DNA from: Tsukamurella sp. PLM1
Lineage (GTDB): Bacteria; Actinomycetota; Actinomycetes; Mycobacteriales; Mycobacteriaceae
Assembly (NCBI RefSeq): GCF_023168325.1
Contig: NZ_AP025688.1
Span: forward strand, 2,914,001-2,978,000
DNA: 64,000 nucleotides
Direction of reading: 5' to 3'
Position 1 is the first letter of the stretch; each line of letters opens with the position of its first letter. The notes beneath the pieces are model-generated. The model saw only the letters and a program-made list of their open reading frames with translations. It made no database searches and was not told the origin of the DNA. The position numbers and the translations under genes were made by a program. This document shows, piece after piece, positions 3,040 through 10,950 of the stretch.

Positions 3040-6000
3040 ATGCACGACGACCGGCGGCTGACCGAAGAGCGGCTCGACAGGTTCACCAACGGATTCCTCA
3101 ACGGAGCGGTCCACTCGCGTCGCGCGCCGGTCACTGTCACGGCGTGGACGGTGCCGGGCGAGCCGGTGCCGTTCGCGGACGCTGTGACGCAGGAGTTCAC
3201 GCCGATCGCCGCCGGCACGCCGTGGGGCGCGCCGTGGTCCGCCCTGTGGCTGCACGTGACCGGAACGCCGCCGGCCGACTGGGCGGGGCGCGACGGGGCG
3301 CTCGAACTGCTCGTGGAGCTCGGTTTCACCGGCGGCCCCGGGTTCAACGCCGAGGGCCTCGTGTACCGGGCGGACGGCACCGTCGTGAAAGGGATCTCGC
3401 CGTTCAACGCGTACGTGCCGCTGGCGCCCGACGAGCCGGTGGACCTGTACGTCGAGGCCGCCGCGAACCCCGACCTCGGCGGCGACTTCGTCTCCCCCAC
3501 CCCGCTCGGCGACCGCGCCACCGCGGGCGACGGTCCGCTGTACCGGCTCGGGGCGATCGAACTCGCGCTGCGCGACGTGACGGTGTGGGAACTGCAGCAG
3601 GACGTCTGGACGCTGAACGGCCTGATGCACGAGCTCCCGTTCGACCTGCCGCGCCGGCACGACGTGCTGCGCGCCCTGGAGCGGATGCTGGACGTGGTGG
3701 ACCCGCACGACGTGGCCGGGACGGCCGCTGCCGGCCGTCGGGCCCTGGCGCCCGCGCTGGCGGCGCCCGCGTACGCCTCGGCGCACCGGGTCACCGCGGT
3801 CGGCCACGCGCACATCGACTCCGCGTGGCTGTGGCCGGTGCGGGAGACGGCGCGCAAGTGCGCGCGGACGTTCGCGAACGTCGTCGACCTGATGGACCGG
3901 GATCCTTCGCTGATCTTCGCCTGCTCGTCGGCCCAGCAGTTCGCATGGGTGAAGGAGCGCTACCCGGATCTGTACGCCCGGATCCGGGAGTACGTCGCGG
4001 CAGGCCGGTTCGTGCCGGTGGGCGGCATGTGGGTGGAGGCCGATACCAACATGCCCGGCGGGGAGGCGATGGCGCGGCAGTTCGTGCGCGGCAAGGGATT
4101 CTTCCTGGACGAGTTCGGCATCGACACTCCGGAGGCCTGGCTGCCGGACTCCTTCGGGTACTCGGCCGCGATGCCGCAGATCGTCGCCGCGGCGGGCTCG
4201 GAATTCTTCCTGACGCAGAAGCTGTCGTGGAACCAGACCAACCGGATGCCGCACTCGACGTTCCTCTGGGAGGGCATCGACGGCACCGCGCTGTTCACGC
4301 ACTTCCCGCCCGTCGACAAGTACAACTCGGACCTGTCCGGTGCGGATCTCGCCCGCGCGCAGAAGAACTACCGCGAGCAGGGCGCCGGAACGCGCTCGCT
4401 CGTCCCGTTCGGGTGGGGCGACGGTGGCGGTGGCCCCACCCGGGAGATGCTCGCGGCCGCCGCGCGCACGGCGTCCCTGGAGGGATCACCCACCGTCGAG
4501 ATGGAGTCGCCCGCACGGTTCTTCGAGGCGGCGCGCGCGGAGTACGCGGCGCCGCCCCGATGGTCCGGTGAGCTGTACCTGGAGTTCCACCGCGGCACCT
4601 ACACGTCGCAGGCGAACACCAAGCAGGGCAACCGGCGCAGCGAACACCTCCTGCGCGAGGCCGAGCTCTGGGCCGCGACCGCCGCCGTGCGCGTGGGCTT
4701 CGCATACCCCGACGCGGAACTGCAGGAGATCTGGGAGACGGTGCTGCTGCAGCAGTTCCACGACATCCTTCCGGGCAGCTCGATCGCCTGGGTGCATCAG
4801 GACGCCGAGCGGAACTACGCCGCGGTGGCCCGTCGGCTCGAGGCGATCATCGCCGCGGCGCTGCAGGCGCTCGCCGGAACCGAAGACGGCGGCACCGGAC
4901 GCGGAGGCACCGGCAGCGACGCCACCGGAAGCGGAGGCACCGGAGACGGCGGCACCGGAGACGGAGGCACCGGAAGCGGAGGCGGCACCGTTCCCGCTGG
5001 TGCGCAAACCGGTTCGGCGGCGAGCACATCGCTGGTGTTCAACGCCGCGCCGCACGCCCGCGACGGTGTACCGGCCCTGGGGGCCGCGGTCGTCCCCCCG
5101 ACCGAGCCGATCACTCCGCGGGCCGAGGGTCGCGATCTGGTGCTGGACAACGGCGTCGTCCGCGCGGTGATCGACGAGCGGGGACTGCTCATGTCTCTCG
5201 TCGACGCGGCCACCGGCAGGGAGGCCATGGCCGGCCCGGGCAATCTGCTGCAGTTGCACCGCGACATCCCGAACCACTGGGAGGCGTGGGACGTCGACTC
5301 GTTCTACCGCCGCGACGTGACCGACCTGCTCGAGGCGGATGCGGTGGCGACCGCCGGCGACGCGGTGGTGGTGCAGCGCTCGTTCGGCGATTCGTCGGTG
5401 ACGCAGCACATCTCGCTTCGCGATGGCTCCCCCGCCCTGGACATCAAGCTCGATATCGACTGGTATGAGACCCAGAAGCTGCTCAAACTGGCGTTCCCGT
5501 TCGATGTGCAGGCGGACCGCAGCGCCTCGGAGACCCAGTTCGGCCACGTCTTCCGGCCGACCCACGCGAACACCTCCTGGGACGCCGCGAAGTTCGAGAT
5601 CTGCGCGCACCGCTGGGTGCACGTGGGCGAGCCGGACTACGGCATCGCCGTGGCGAACGACTCCACCTACGGACACGACATCACGCGAGCCCCGGCGGAT
5701 TCGGGCGACGCCGTCCCGGGCACCGTCGTGCGGCTGTCGCTGCTCCGCGCTCCGCGCTACCCCGACCCCCACACCGATCAGGGCCCACACCGGCTCGCCG
5801 TCTCGGTGCGGCCCGGCGCGACGATCGGCGACGCCGTCGAGGAGGGCTACCGCCGCAACCTCGCTCCGCGCGGGGTCCCCGGCTCGGCGGCGGTCGCACC
5901 GCTCGTCGCGGTCGATCACCCCGGCGTGATCGTGGAGGCGGTCAAACTGGCGGAGGACGGCAGCGGCGACGTGGTGGTGCGCCTGTACGAGTCGCGGGGC

Positions 6001-6156
6001 ACGCGCGCGACCGCGACGGTCCGCGCCGACTTCCCGCACGGCTCCACGGTCCGCACGGACCTCCTGGAGCGCCCCGTCGCCGATGCGGAGCCCGACGGTG
6101 ACGTCCGCCTCACCCTCCGCCCCTTCCAGCTGGTCACCCTCCGTTTCCGCCGCTGA
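3040..6156 (+). CDS. GH38 alpha-mannosidase
   Basis: Cytoplasmic-type class II alpha-mannosidase, 1038 residues, which removes alpha-linked mannose from mannosides or glycoconjugates; no signal peptide is visible. The catalytic GH38 domain begins near residue 252 with the zinc motif GHAHIDSAWLWP and contains WLPDSFGYSAAMPQ near residue 367, whose Asp is the family nucleophile. The mid-domain (NRRSEHLLREAELW, QQFHDILPGSSIAWV) and C-terminal beta-sandwich domains follow. Between the last two is a Gly-Thr-Gly repeat linker (residues 616-649). Its last 20 codons are found again, decayed, at 8577-8645 beyond the HNH gene. Mannose-rich lipoglycans of mycolata are plausible substrates, but that is inference. 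Confidence 0.9.
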   Translation: MHDDRRLTEERLDRFTNGFLNGAVHSRRAPVTVTAWTVPGEPVPFADAVTQEFTPIAAGTPWGAPWSALWLHVTGTPPADWAGRDGALELLVELGFTGGPGFNAEGLVYRADGTVVKGISPFNAYVPLAPDEPVDLYVEAAANPDLGGDFVSPTPLGDRATAGDGPLYRLGAIELALRDVTVWELQQDVWTLNGLMHELPFDLPRRHDVLRALERMLDVVDPHDVAGTAAAGRRALAPALAAPAYASAHRVTAVGHAHIDSAWLWPVRETARKCARTFANVVDLMDRDPSLIFACSSAQQFAWVKERYPDLYARIREYVAAGRFVPVGGMWVEADTNMPGGEAMARQFVRGKGFFLDEFGIDTPEAWLPDSFGYSAAMPQIVAAAGSEFFLTQKLSWNQTNRMPHSTFLWEGIDGTALFTHFPPVDKYNSDLSGADLARAQKNYREQGAGTRSLVPFGWGDGGGGPTREMLAAAARTASLEGSPTVEMESPARFFEAARAEYAAPPRWSGELYLEFHRGTYTSQANTKQGNRRSEHLLREAELWAATAAVRVGFAYPDAELQEIWETVLLQQFHDILPGSSIAWVHQDAERNYAAVARRLEAIIAAALQALAGTEDGGTGRGGTGSDATGSGGTGDGGTGDGGTGSGGGTVPAGAQTGSAASTSLVFNAAPHARDGVPALGAAVVPPTEPITPRAEGRDLVLDNGVVRAVIDERGLLMSLVDAATGREAMAGPGNLLQLHRDIPNHWEAWDVDSFYRRDVTDLLEADAVATAGDAVVVQRSFGDSSVTQHISLRDGSPALDIKLDIDWYETQKLLKLAFPFDVQADRSASETQFGHVFRPTHANTSWDAAKFEICAHRWVHVGEPDYGIAVANDSTYGHDITRAPADSGDAVPGTVVRLSLLRAPRYPDPHTDQGPHRLAVSVRPGATIGDAVEEGYRRNLAPRGVPGSAAVAPLVAVDHPGVIVEAVKLAEDGSGDVVVRLYESRGTRATATVRADFPHGSTVRTDLLERPVADAEPDGDVRLTLRPFQLVTLRFRR
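4885..4986 (+). repeat. Tandem G-T-G-x-G coding minisatellite
   Basis: About seven imperfect 15-base units (consensus GGCACCGGAGACGGA) encode a run of Gly-Thr-Gly-Asp/Ser-Gly pentads in the mannosidase, between the catalytic middle domain and the C-terminal beta domain. Such a repeat can change length by slippage without breaking the frame and probably acts as a flexible linker. Confidence 0.75.
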
Positions 6157-6226
6157 CCGGCCGGAAATTCGGTGGCACTCGAGGCGCACATGGGACATGC
6201 TGCCGCCGTGGACACCGTCGACGTGG

Positions 6227-8445
6227 TCAGAAGGGCGGAGGACCGTCGTACGACGGGGCCCTAGGCGGGGGCGAACCGAGCGCACGGACGACTGTGTCCT
6301 CGACGGCGCTGCGGGGCTCCGCCGCGGCTGCCTGATCGGCCTGCAGCGCAGCGACATTGCGCGCGCGGAGCCGTTCGCGCCGGGCGTGCTCGCGCTGCAG
6401 GCGGGTGCGCCCGCCGGGTCGGGGTGCATCCGGAATGAGGCGCCCGCCCGCCGAGACGACGGCCCCCGGCCCGGCGCCACTCGGCACGATCCATTGCACC
6501 CGAGCCAGGTCGGGGAACAACCGCAGCACGATCCCGCTGGGATCGACGATGTACCTCCGGTCGTCCGGCGAAGTCCACAGGATCCGCCCGTCCGGCAGGA
6601 GCGCATCGATCCATGCGCCCGCGGTCTTCAGTTGGTGGTGGGCCACGCACAACGGCTGCAGTTGGTCCGCCGTCGTCGCGCCACCGAGCCGCGGATCGCG
6701 ATGGTCGTACTCGCGCCGATGATCGATCTGCGCGCGCGACGCCGGCCGGTTGCAGAACGGGAACACGCACCGCGGGAACACCAACCGTATGTACCGCAGC
6801 AGATCCGCCGACGGCCGATACCTCGCACTGCCCCGCGCCCGCACCAGAGCACGCGCACCTTCCGCGCCGGAACGGGCGCCAGAACCCGATGCGGCGCCCT
6901 CACTGCCGCTGGACGATCCGCCACCACCGGGTGTCACTTCGCCACCCGGATCTCGCCCACCTGGATCTCGACCACCGGGAACTCCACCACCACCGGGAGC
7001 TCCACCACCGGCGGGTGATCCGCCGTCCGGTGGGCCGTCGTTCGGTGGGCCGTCGTCCGAGACGCCTCCCCCGTCGGGTGGCACGTCATCGTCGCGCGGT
7101 CCGCCGCCGTCGGGAGATCCCCCGCCATCTGGGGCTTCACCACCACCCTCGGGCCAGGAATGCACCTCGAATCCGAGCACGATCTCCGCCCACTCCCATG
7201 CAAAATCGATCGTCCCGCGCACCGCGTCCACGCCGGGCGCGGCAGGAGTCGGTGATTCGGCAGAGCCGCCCCCAGAGGACGCACCACCTGCGGCCCCGGG
7301 CATCTCGGGTGGGTCATCGATGCGGGTGCCGAACGGGCGGATCCTCGCACCGTCGCGAGCGGCCAGTTCCCGCGCGTACTCCGCACTGATCGGGCCGTGC
7401 CCCACGAGGTAGGCCACCCCACCACCCGCAGCAGGATCCGCACCCGCGGTATCGGATTCGCTGCCAGCGGAAGGAGGCTCAGCGACCTCGGGACGGGCGA
7501 CACCGGAATGGGCGAGATCGGGCTCGGCGAGGTCGCGCTCGTTCATCACCACGTGGATCATCGTGACGAACCGGGCGACGGCACCGTCGGCGTCCGGCTC
7601 CCCGTGGAACCGCGCCTGTCGGTACCGACAGTTCTCGAGGTCGCACTGGCACCCCAGAGTCGAGTACCCGCGGGCCAATTGCATCAACCCGTCCGCGCAG
7701 CGCTGCGACACCGTGCGCGGATCGGCGTCGCACACCGTGCCCGCGATGTCCTCCACGCGGGCCCGCAGTTCCAGACCGTGATGCGCCGGCAGCAACGCGA
7801 ACGCCGCCGCCATCCCGTCCTCCTCCGGGCGGAACGTGACCCTACGATCCTCGACCGCCGCCTTTCGGCGCCGCTCCCAGGCCTCCGGATCGATTCCCCG
7901 CACCACCAGATCCGCGGCCTCTCGCAACGCGGGCAGCGACAGCACCTCGTACTCGGCGACGAGTTGCTCCGCCAACTGTCGATCGAACTCCCGGGCCTGC
8001 TCCGCTGTGAGCGCCTGCGCCCGACCCAGCGCCGCCTCCCCGCCTTGGGCGAGATCACCCCGGAGCCAATGAGCGCGAATACCTGCGGCACCCGCTCGAC
8101 CAACCCGACCGCGACCTCGATCGCGTGCGACGCCGCTGTCGAACCAACCCGCAGAAGCGTGGAAACCTGCGCCTCCAACGCCTCGGACGCCGCCGACAGC
8201 CGGCGCCGTGCGGCCACCGCCTCCGCGTAATCACCAGGACCCGCCAGATACGCCGCCTCATCATCGGCGTACATCACCCGGTGCAGCGCGTACACGGTAG
8301 CAACCGTGCGACAGAACGCAGTATTCTCCGACCTCCGCTGTTCGAAGAGGATCTCCGCGATGGCCCGATCGTCTCGGCCAGCAGCATCGAGCCCCCCGGG
8401 AACCAAATCCCCAGGTAGATCGCGTAACGCCGCCGGAAGTGCCAT
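6227..8445 (-). CDS. DUF222/HNH endonuclease domain protein, one frameshift
   Basis: Member of the large actinobacterial DUF222-HNH family related to the mycobacterial 13E12 repeat proteins. The N-terminal DUF222 helical domain (MALPAALRDLPGDL to about residue 370) is followed by a long Gly/Pro/Asp-rich linker (bases about 6900-7160) and a C-terminal HNH nuclease domain with CVFPFCNRPASRAQIDH and PLCVAHHQLKT, which carry the zinc Cys pair and catalytic His. The frame breaks at a run of four C at 8038-8041: one added base joins VISPKAG to EAALGRAQALTAEQ. Restored length is about 739 residues. The ATG at 8445 is preceded by TATCAT at leaderless spacing. It is flanked by the mannosidase 3' end and its decayed copy, so it may have inserted there. 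Function in the cell is unknown. Confidence 0.8.
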
Positions 8446-8451
8446 GACTCA

Positions 8452-8457
8452 ATGATA
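8452..8457 (-). promoter_or_regulatory. Leaderless -10 element of the DUF222/HNH gene
   Basis: TATCAT on the minus strand ends six bases before the ATG at 8445, and no Shine-Dalgarno is present. This supports the chosen start. Confidence 0.5.
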
Positions 8458-8576
8458 CACCCGTTCGATAGAATGCACCACGTTTCGCTAGATACGTTCG
8501 AGAATGCGGCTCGGACCAGCGTGACCGTCTCGGACAGAATCGGAGAGTCGCGCCACCGTCGCACCCGCACTCGCCA

Positions 8577-8645
8577 CGCCAGACGGTGACGTCCGCCTCA
8601 CCATGCGCCCGTCTCAGCTGGTCACACCGCATTTTCCGCGCTGGC
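8577..8645 (+). pseudogene. Decayed second copy of the alpha-mannosidase 3' end
   Basis: This stretch aligns to the last coding bases of the mannosidase (6094-6150). The first 21 bases are identical, and CAGCTGGTCAC is shared further on. Translated, it reads DGDVRLTMRPSQLVT against DGDVRLTLRPFQLVT in the gene. No stop codon or start belongs to it, and similarity fades upstream. The two copies bracket the minus-strand DUF222/HNH gene. It is either the original gene end displaced by an insertion or what is left of a second mannosidase gene. The 8446-8736 stretch holds nothing else I recognise. Confidence 0.7.
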
Positions 8646-8736
8646 GTGCTCAGCGTCACCTCGATCGCCCCGCGACACGCTGATAGTTTGAAAGTTCATC
8701 ACTATCACTAGTGTCCTTCGAATCAAGGAGGTCGAG

Positions 8737-8889
8737 ATGCTCAGCGTGCTGGCATTGATCACTTTCGTCGTCTTCCTCGTCTGGCTGACGAACGACCGGA
8801 ACGGCCAGGACTTCCGCGCCCGCGACGTCCGTCGCGCCGTCGCGGACCGGGACCGCCGTACCGATCCTCGGGGCGTGATCGTCTCCTGA
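8737..8889 (+). CDS. Small membrane protein, 50 aa
   Basis: Unrecognised 50-residue protein with an N-terminal hydrophobic helix (about residues 2-18, LSVLALITFVVFLVWL) and a cytoplasmic tail full of Arg and Asp. A near-perfect Shine-Dalgarno, AAGGAGG, ends five bases before the ATG, which makes the start and the existence of the gene convincing despite its size. It is alone between the mannosidase remnant and the convergent M3 peptidase gene. Function unknown. Confidence 0.65.
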   Translation: MLSVLALITFVVFLVWLTNDRNGQDFRARDVRRAVADRDRRTDPRGVIVS

Positions 8890-8919
8890 CGCGCATGCCC
8901 GTCGCGTGATCGTTCGCCG

Positions 8920-10950
8920 TCAGTTCAGCCCGCGTCGCTCCAGCAGCGGCGTGATGTCGGGGTCGGCGCCGCGGAAATCGCGGTAGGCCTGCGAGGCGTC
9001 CACGCTGCCGCCGCGGGACAGCACTGCCGCGCGCAGCTTCTCGCCGTTCTCGCGGGTCGGCCCGTCGTGGGCGGTGAACCAGGCCGCGGCGTCGGCGTCG
9101 AGCACCTCCGACCAGATGTAGCTGTAGTACCCCGCGCTGTACCCGCCCGAGAAGATGTGGTTGAAGAACGGCCCGCGGTACCGCGGCGGCACCCCGTCCA
9201 CGTCGAGCCCGGCGTCGGCGAGCGCGGCGGCCTCGAAGGCCGCCACGTCGTCGACCACGGTGCCGGGCTCGATGGTGTGCCAGGCCAGGTCGATCACCGC
9301 GGCGCCCAGGTACTCGACGGTGCTGAATCCCTCACCGCGCGTTCCGGGCTCGAGCACCGACCGCCGCAACTCCGCGGGCAGCGGCTCCCCCGTTTCGTGG
9401 TGCCGCGCGTACCCGTCGAGGATCGTCGGCCACGCGGCGAACATCTCGTTGAACTGCGACGGGAACTCCACGAAATCGCGCGGCACGCTCGTACCCGAGA
9501 AGTACGGGTACGTCACGGCCGAGAGCAGCCCGTGCAGCGCATGCCCGAACTCGTGGAACACCGTGGTCACCTCGTCGCGCGTGAGCAGCGCCGGCCGACC
9601 CGCCGGCGGCTGAACGAAGTTGCACACGTTGATGATCACCGGCTGCGCGTCCAGCAGCCGGGACTGGTCCACGAAGCTGGTCATCCACGCCCCGCCGCGC
9701 TTGCTCGGCCGCGCGAAGTAGTCCCCCACGAACAGGCCGAGCGGCGCACCGTCGGGCCCCGCGACCTGCCACGCCCGCGCGGCGGGATGGTGCAGCACGA
9801 GGTCGGTGCGTTCGGTGAATTCGAGCCCGTACATGCGCCGCGCGGCCTCGAAGACGCCCTTCTCGACGACGGCGCCCAGCTCGAAGAACTCGCTCAGCGC
9901 GGGCCCGGCGGAGCCCTCACCGGTCTGTCCGCGCTGCTCGGCGATCCGCGCGTAGAACGGCCAATCCCAGGCCTCGATCGGGTGTCCCGCGATCTCCTCC
10001 AGCTCGGCTCGCTCGGCGGCGGCGTTGCGCGCGGCCGGCCCCGCGAGGTCGCGCAGCATCCCGAGGGCCGCCTCGGCGGTCCCGGCGGTCTGGTCCGCGA
10101 TCTGGTACGCGGCGTGGTGCGGGTAGCCGAACAGCGCGGCGCGCTCCGCCCGGAGCCCCGCGATCCGGGCGATCAGCTCGCGCGTGTCGTTCTCGCCGCC
10201 CCGCGTGTTCCGGCCCGACGAGGCGTCGAACACCTTCCGGCGCGACTCCCGGTTCGTGAGCCGGGCGACGTTGGGCTGGTTCAGCGGATAGCCCAGCGCG
10301 AGCAGGTATCCGTCCCGGCCCGCCTGCTCGGCCGCCGCCCGCGCGGCCCCGACGGTGTCGGCGTCGAGGCCATCGAGTTCGGCCTCGGTCGCGAACTGCA
10401 CGGCGGAGGCGTTGGTCTCCGCCAGTGTGCGCCGCGAGAACTCGGTCGTCAGCTCCGCCAGCTCGGTGTTGATCGCGCCCACCCGGGCCTGCGCGGCGTC
10501 GTCCAATCCCGCTCCGGCGCGGGTGAACCGGAGGTGGTACCGCTCCACCAGCCGCAGCTGCTCGGCGTCCAGCCCCAGGGCGTCGCGCCGGGAGTACAGA
10601 TCGTCGATGCGCCCGAACAGCGCCCTGTCCATGTGGATGGCGTCGAAGTGGGCCGACCACTGCGGCGAGATCGCCGCCTGCGCGGCCTCGAGCTCGTCCG
10701 TACGGTCCGTCGAGGTCAGCGAGAAGAAGACCGATGCCACCCGGGAGAGTTCCCGGCCCGCGCGCTCCATCGCTTCGATGGTGTTCGTGAACGTGGCGGG
10801 CTCGGGATTCTCGGCGATCGCCGCGATCTCGGCGTGGTGCCGCGTGAACCCCTCGGCGAACGCCACCGGGAAGTCGGTCCCGGCGAACGTCGCGAAGTCC
10901 GGCAGCGCGAAGGGCAGGGTGCTGGGTGCGAGAACGGCGTCGACGGTCAC
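8920..10950 (-). CDS. M3 family zinc metallopeptidase (peptidyl-dipeptidase Dcp type)
   Basis: Cytoplasmic zinc oligopeptidase, 676 residues, the usual length for Dcp/oligopeptidase A. The HExxH zinc motif is in TVFHEFGHALHGLLS near residue 463, and the downstream part has FVEFPSQFNEMFA with the third zinc ligand. HIFSGGYSAGYYSYIWSE near the C-terminus is also typical of the family and forms part of the substrate cleft. It should trim short peptides from protein turnover, releasing dipeptides if it is a true Dcp. The GTG start at 10950 is preceded by TAGGTT at leaderless spacing. It stands alone, convergent with the 50-residue protein. Confidence 0.9.
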   Translation of the reverse strand: MTVDAVLAPSTLPFALPDFATFAGTDFPVAFAEGFTRHHAEIAAIAENPEPATFTNTIEAMERAGRELSRVASVFFSLTSTDRTDELEAAQAAISPQWSAHFDAIHMDRALFGRIDDLYSRRDALGLDAEQLRLVERYHLRFTRAGAGLDDAAQARVGAINTELAELTTEFSRRTLAETNASAVQFATEAELDGLDADTVGAARAAAEQAGRDGYLLALGYPLNQPNVARLTNRESRRKVFDASSGRNTRGGENDTRELIARIAGLRAERAALFGYPHHAAYQIADQTAGTAEAALGMLRDLAGPAARNAAAERAELEEIAGHPIEAWDWPFYARIAEQRGQTGEGSAGPALSEFFELGAVVEKGVFEAARRMYGLEFTERTDLVLHHPAARAWQVAGPDGAPLGLFVGDYFARPSKRGGAWMTSFVDQSRLLDAQPVIINVCNFVQPPAGRPALLTRDEVTTVFHEFGHALHGLLSAVTYPYFSGTSVPRDFVEFPSQFNEMFAAWPTILDGYARHHETGEPLPAELRRSVLEPGTRGEGFSTVEYLGAAVIDLAWHTIEPGTVVDDVAAFEAAALADAGLDVDGVPPRYRGPFFNHIFSGGYSAGYYSYIWSEVLDADAAAWFTAHDGPTRENGEKLRAAVLSRGGSVDASQAYRDFRGADPDITPLLERRGLN

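What the first reader, a model, noticed from the sequence alone, without database searches (positions are those of the whole stretch)
6094..8645. DUF222/HNH gene bracketed by the mannosidase 3' end and a decayed copy of it
Bases 8582-8602 are identical to 6094-6114, and similarity continues for about 60 bases, including CAGCTGGTCAC; the peptides DGDVRLTLRP and DGDVRLTMRP correspond. The copies are direct repeats on either side of a minus-strand nuclease gene. One explanation is that the nuclease gene inserted near the end of the mannosidase gene while carrying or rebuilding the coding end, so that the host gene stayed intact, as some homing or phage-like elements do. It may be a clue to how the very numerous DUF222-HNH genes of actinobacteria spread.
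Basis: partly seen in the sequence, partly recalled or inferred. Interest (0 to 1): 0.7.

Follow-up and report, generated by a model that had tools for sequence, protein, structure and literature searches.

The report
Reshuffled locus beside a nuclease gene
A worn second copy of the end of a sugar-cutting enzyme gene really does sit behind a nuclease-like gene here, but comparison with related bacteria suggests it is the scar of an ordinary local duplication followed by losses, not the landing mark of a mobile nuclease gene.

Summary
In detail: 6090-6155 (end of a GH38 mannosidase gene) and 8578-8643 are direct repeats, 80% identical, around a minus-strand DUF222/HNH gene. In 9 of 13 same-genus relatives read, the mannosidase stop runs straight into sequence like window ~8645 onward, so the decayed copy holds the ancestral place: the empty-site prediction holds. 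The insertion reading is not supported. DUF222 of the same clade lies downstream in G003 and G005, between HxlR and M3 peptidase genes. The ~70 bases between mannosidase and DUF222 match what relatives have between the small ORF and an APH-like gene, including that gene's start. G003 reads A-B-C-D-E; the window A-C'-D-A'-B-E. Tandem duplication with complementary losses explains this, one loss at a CTGAC shared by two stop codons; no intermediate was seen. Both mannosidase ends share a base found in 0 of 10 relatives. Of 36 DUF222 loci scored (from 166 matches in the genus), only this one has clearly duplicated flanks. DUF222 genes do reach new sites in this genus, without such duplications in the case examined.

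The parts
3040..6156 (+). GH38 alpha-mannosidase gene, intact reading frame (1038 aa)
6090..6155 (+). A: intact copy of the mannosidase 3' end
6153..6228 (+). C': mannosidase stop fused (at CTGAC, 6153-6157) to a stretch like the one that follows the small ORF in relatives, then the first bases of an APH-like gene (about 6197-6228), running into the DUF222 3' end
   Evidence: matches L031, L035, L036, L038 at the start of the APH-like gene
6227..8445 (-). D: DUF222/HNH gene; N-terminal part in another frame (real or sequencing error)
8446..8501 (-). DUF222 upstream region, shared with own paralog L159; its first part also with L032 (to 8464) and L033 (to 8471)
8516..8567 (.). dispersed repeat of the genus (core GGACAGAATCGGAGAG at 8532-8547)
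8578..8644 (+). A': decayed mannosidase 3' end in its ancestral place, stop codon lost
8645..8736 (+). B: sequence that directly follows the mannosidase stop in relatives
8737..8889 (+). B: small conserved ORF (50 aa, no Pfam family above cut-off)
8920..10950 (-). E: M3-family peptidase gene

Best explanation
The locus is a permuted gene order left by a local duplication and later losses. Inferred ancestral order, as in G003: mannosidase end (A), spacer and small ORF (B), APH-like/DUF1761/HxlR genes (C), DUF222 (D), M3 peptidase (E). A segment from the last ~66 bases of the mannosidase to just beyond the DUF222 start was duplicated in tandem in this species' lineage. The redundant halves were then lost in complementary fashion: B and most of C from the left copy, C and D from the right copy. 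The result is A-C'-D-A'-B-E. The complete mannosidase kept the selected coding end; the copy left behind, A', decayed. Shown: the orders, the empty site, the match to the APH gene start, the shared states of the two copies. Inferred: the duplication step and the order of the losses.
For: (1) In 9 of 13 relatives read the mannosidase stop is followed directly by the B sequence and small ORF. (2) DUF222 of the same clade lies between HxlR and M3 in G003 and G005; G006 keeps a 3' remnant there (64-base match to the G003 gene, score 83 against a maximum of 34 in 300 random versions). (3) Between mannosidase and DUF222 the window matches the small ORF-APH stretch in 4 of 4 APH-bearing relatives (scores 38-41 against maxima 27-37 in 1000 first-order random versions; L036 only just, 38 against 37; L038 aligned over ~65 bases); in G000 the APH-DUF1761-HxlR segment gives only short DNA matches. 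(4) That junction joins mannosidase CGCTGAC to what follows small-ORF CTGAC. (5) Both mannosidase ends share an A found in 0 of 10 relatives and two bases otherwise only in G003. (6) By majority of ten relatives, 9 of 12 differences are derived in A', at all three codon positions; the 2 derived in A are third positions.
Against: No intermediate (full tandem duplication) was seen in the 13 relative loci read; only the window has this order. Several steps are needed. G000 branches outside most relatives in the mannosidase and M3 trees (midpoint-rooted, weakly supported), so polarity rests on A' being a fragment rather than on an outgroup. Only G003 shows the full order A-B-C-D-E; G005 lacks the APH-like gene, G012 lacks C and its contig ends inside DUF222. 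The dispersed repeat at the D-A' junction is not explained by the model. The shared-state argument rests on few sites.
Confidence: 0.75

Rival explanations
1. Gene transfer with one homologous arm: DNA from another strain with mannosidase-C'-DUF222 order recombined within the mannosidase on the left and joined illegitimately into the recipient's mannosidase 3' end on the right, leaving the recipient's own end as A'.
For: Needs one integration step; explains a truncated A' in the ancestral place. The last 70 bases of the window's mannosidase are 87% identical to G003 but 71% to G006, although G003 and G006 are sisters: a hint of exchange.
Against: Both ends share a base found in none of ten relatives, so a donor would have to be very close kin; no strain with mannosidase-C'-DUF222 order was found among the 13 loci read; identity along the mannosidase shows no sustained switch, though the nearest relative varies from window to window.
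Confidence: 0.13
2. The DUF222/HNH gene is mobile and inserted in the mannosidase 3' end, duplicating the target or carrying a copy of the coding end.
For: Direct repeats bracket the gene; empty site confirmed. DUF222 copies do appear at new sites in this genus.
Against: The gene is flanked on the left by what look like remnants of its old neighbours; the same clade sits downstream in relatives; none of 35 other DUF222 loci scored has clearly duplicated flanks (L192 marginal); at the new site L159 the compared junctions show no obvious flank duplication.
Confidence: 0.06
3. Assembly artefact in a low-quality genome.
For: Completeness 83.88% on one contig, and DUF222 frameshifted.
Against: A' has diverged by substitutions spread over 66 bases and its right side continues as in relatives; indel errors do not make a permuted order.
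Confidence: 0.03

Closest known systems
[quoted passage not shown] PMC5122201)
   Same: Order change explained by a duplicated segment with complementary losses, leaving a fragment of a boundary gene
   Different: Bacterial chromosome; the duplicated full-length intermediate was not seen; one loss at a short shared sequence
REP13E12 repeats of Mycobacterium tuberculosis (named together with HNH endonuclease/DUF222 in PMC10589994; passages of it and of preprint PMC13061034 seen)
   Same: DUF222/HNH, multicopy; the preprint reports frequent gene conversion between REP13E12 loci, and here the C-terminal part of the window gene is sister to own paralog L159 while the N-terminal part is not
   Different: Another genus; function and any link to a prophage attachment site were not tested here
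Elements that rebuild a gene 3' end on insertion (integrases at tRNA or other gene ends; recalled)
   Same: An intact and a displaced copy of a gene 3' end as direct repeats
   Different: Between the repeats I see only the DUF222 gene, no recombinase among the ORFs listed, and the gene was already in the neighbourhood in relatives

Membership tests
Tandem duplication with complementary loss | Ancestral order in relatives and permuted order here, segments keeping their strand | tested here: met
   full order A-B-C-D-E in G003 only
Tandem duplication with complementary loss | Remnant of a gene deleted from one of the copies | tested here: met
   APH start match at about 6197-6228
Tandem duplication with complementary loss | The two copies of the boundary gene derive from the same lineage | tested here: inconclusive
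   one base shared by both copies and by 0 of 10 relatives, others shared with only 1 or 2
Tandem duplication with complementary loss | A strain with the undeleted duplication | tested here: not met
   none among 13 relative loci read; one genome per species held
Mobile element that rebuilds its target gene | Empty site with a single target-gene end | tested here: met
   9 of 13 relatives read; equally expected under duplication and loss
Mobile element that rebuilds its target gene | Only the element lies between the repeats | tested here: not met
   a stretch resembling former neighbour DNA lies inside
Mobile element that rebuilds its target gene | Same flank duplication at other copies | tested here: not met
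   no clear case among 35 other DUF222 loci scored, L192 marginal; 166 matches exist in the genus
DUF222/HNH (13E12-type) genes | DUF222 domain | tested here: met
   61 bits, cut-off 24.4
DUF222/HNH (13E12-type) genes | HNH motif | tested here: inconclusive
   14.0 bits, below cut-off 21.4; central Asn replaced by Gln
DUF222/HNH (13E12-type) genes | Nuclease activity | not testable with these tools
   no assay

The most novel reading that the evidence does not exclude
DUF222/HNH genes are not passive: cutting near their own loci provokes duplications and exchanges, so that these loci become breakpoints (the window's duplication, and the exchange in G001/G012 that re-joins two formerly separate pairs of neighbours through two DUF222 copies), and the gene rides along to new places as a gene-plus-promoter unit.
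Probability: 0.08. Interest if true: 0.6.

Novelty: new member of a known kind. Interest (0 to 1): 0.3.

Why it matters
It shows how a locus that looks like a mobile-element insertion can be a duplication-and-loss scar, and that comparison with relatives is what separates the two. It also points to cases (L159 in this genome; G001/G012) for the open question of how the numerous DUF222/HNH genes of actinobacteria multiply: L159 shares with the window gene the coding region and about 56 bases upstream, sits at a place that is nearly empty in G015, and shows no duplicated neighbour.

Tried and rejected
A general rule that DUF222 genes duplicate neighbouring gene ends: not borne out (36 loci scored of 45 offered, window included; 9 skipped because one half of the gene was not hit or a flank was missing, six of them in this genome; 166 DUF222 matches exist in the genus, so most were not tested). 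A leftward extension of the decayed copy to ~8500: rejected, that stretch matches a dispersed repeat. The dispersed repeat as a terminal inverted repeat carrying DUF222: no partner elsewhere in the window at up to 3 mismatches; of five paired copies whose inner stretch I printed, two (L300, L301) share an ORF and three are repetitive, and I did not search them for DUF222. Mosaic structure of the mannosidase: no sustained switch. Remnants of DUF222 before M3: clear in G006; doubtful in G014 (above the null maximum with 2 of 4 references); not seen in G002, G004, G011, G015. Known RNA in 5900-9000: one match far below its gathering score (17.3 against 50). PADLOC models: no match for the two DUF222 proteins scanned. 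PHROGs: weak HNH matches only. Literature searches: DUF222+HNH+actinobacteria 0 papers; REP13E12 14; DUF222 15; '13E12 repeat family'+'HNH endonuclease' 0; duplication-loss terms 199, 15 listed; '13E12 repeat'+LexA+SOS 1. From PMC10589994 and PMC13061034 I saw passages; of all others only the search listing with starts of abstracts.

Full report
What is there. The window (G000:C1:2914001-2978000) lies in a 4.39 Mb one-contig genome whose completeness is given as 83.88%, while its 15 same-genus relatives are at 93-100%. The genus is inferred to be Tsukamurella: contig G009:C3 of the same genus has the length (729203) of NZ_HE997628.1, Tsukamurella sp. 1534. The mannosidase gene (3040-6156, GH38) is open. 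Behind it on the minus strand is a DUF222 gene (6227-8445) with an HNH stretch below Pfam's cut-off, then 66 bases that repeat the mannosidase end (8578-8643), a short spacer, a 50-aa ORF (8737-8889) and an M3 peptidase gene (8920-10950).

Empty site. I read the mannosidase locus in 13 of 15 same-genus relatives; G007 and G008 gave no match. In nine (G002, G003, G004, G005, G006, G011, G012, G014, G015) the mannosidase stop is followed directly by the sequence found at window ~8645 and by the small ORF; for G011 the spacer join is seen in the alignment rather than by BLAST, and in G002 BLAST matched only part of the spacer. G001 has another stretch there, G009 goes straight to the M3 gene, and G010 and G013 have a more distant mannosidase with no small ORF or M3 match in the 13.5 kb read. 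None of the nine shows a second mannosidase end in the stretch read. So the decayed copy is in the ancestral place.

Where the DUF222 gene comes from. In G003 the order is mannosidase, small ORF, APH-like, DUF1761, HxlR, DUF222, M3 (names by Pfam). G005 lacks the APH-like gene; G004 has the APH-HxlR stretch and G015 its APH part, both without DUF222 before M3; G006 lacks DUF222 but keeps 64 bases of its 3' end before M3; in G012 DUF222 follows the small ORF directly and the contig ends inside it. In a tree of the C-terminal part, the window gene falls with the genes at this locus in G003, G005, G001 and G012 and with further copies in G000, G001 and G012 (9 rows, 90/87 support), its sister being own paralog L159 (100/98); in the N-terminal tree it pairs instead with another own paralog, L160, at 93/78. 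The DUF222 gene beyond M3 in G009 belongs to a distant clade. The different sisters of the two halves suggest exchange between paralogs, as reported for REP13E12 in M. tuberculosis (preprint PMC13061034, passages).

The left side of DUF222. Window 6157-6226 matches the stretch between small ORF and APH-like gene and the first bases of that gene in G003, G004, G006 and G015: scores 38, 38, 41, 39 against maxima of 29, 37, 27, 32 in 1000 first-order random versions each, so G004 (L036) only just exceeds its null; BLAST extends the match to 6228. The genus search finds no APH-DUF1761-HxlR segment in G000, only three DNA matches of 41-60 bases; a strongly diverged copy could be missed. The mannosidase ends CGCTGAC and the small ORF of relatives mostly ends CTCCTGAC; in the window the mannosidase CTGAC is followed by small-ORF-side sequence. 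A deletion between the two CTGAC would give this.

The two mannosidase ends. Of 67 aligned positions 12 differ (one a gap; one extra base in the decayed copy left out). Against ten relatives (G009 dropped from this count; states judged by majority), 9 are derived in the decayed copy, 2 in the intact copy (both third codon positions) and 1 is undecided. One base shared by both copies is in none of the ten, two more only in G003, and others in one or two relatives. Both copies therefore most likely come from this lineage, though the sites are few.

Reconstruction. A-B-C-D-E became A-C'-D-A'-B-E. The segments keep their strand. One tandem duplication from A to just past D, then loss of B and most of C on the left and of C and D on the right, accounts for it. 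I have not seen the intermediate. A dispersed repeat of the genus lies between D and A'; whether it took part is unknown.

Does it generalise? Flanks of 36 DUF222 loci were compared: the window scores 73; the next, L192, 42; 419 mismatched pairs reach at most 41. These 36 are a part of the 166 DUF222 matches in 16 genomes (some genes count twice). At least one other DUF222 locus is syntenic: L157, L158, L160, L161, L163 and L164 share it across six genomes. Two new placements were found. (a) L159 in G000 lies between genes that look like a CPBP protease and a TetR regulator (names recalled, not searched), where G015, the one relative of 13 fetched with the same left neighbour, has 57 bases; it shares with the window gene the coding region and about 56 upstream bases. 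(b) In G001 a copy beside the mannosidase and a copy beside M3 are 93% identical over 1833 bases, and the regions on their other sides are neighbours, 227-364 bases apart and so without room for DUF222, in seven genomes (G000, G002, G003, G004, G005, G011, G015) (whose lists were capped; the C6/C46 join is inferred from a 200-base overlap). G012 shares at least one of the new flanks. This looks like a copy placed at a new site followed by exchange between the two copies; that is inference.

Verdict. Observation confirmed; the empty-site prediction confirmed; insertion by the nuclease gene not supported. An ordinary rearrangement, with some side observations of interest. The mended counts did not change my odds.

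Noticed in passing
6227-8445 and related loci: The central Asn of the HNH motif is replaced (13 Gln, 1 Glu, 1 Cys) in 15 of 15 rows of the clade holding the window gene, while the other 25 of 25 rows have Asn.
   Followed up: partly
8516-8567; L300-L314: Dispersed repeat, core GGACAGAATCSGAGAG, exact in 12 of 16 genus genomes with no match to the reversed control; often as facing pairs with starts 39 bases apart or 0.1-1.2 kb apart.
   Followed up: partly
L159 (G000:C1:3452500-3460500): Second DUF222 gene of the same clade in this genome, at a site where G015 has only 57 bases between the flanking genes.
   Followed up: yes
L033 and L172/L162 (G001), L034 and L165 (G012): Two 93% identical DUF222 copies in G001 at the ends of a rearrangement; their outer neighbours are adjacent in seven other genomes.
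   Followed up: partly
L033 about 3640-3900: An extra small ORF that looks like ATP synthase subunit c between mannosidase and DUF222 in G001 (name recalled from the sequence, no database call).
   Followed up: no
L031 last 70 bases of the mannosidase: The mannosidase tail of G003 is closer to the window (87%) than that of its sister G006 is (71%); a possible exchange between lineages.
   Followed up: no
whole genome G000: Several genes, DUF222 and others, appear in split frames as I read the lists, and completeness is low; indel errors in the assembly are likely.
   Followed up: no
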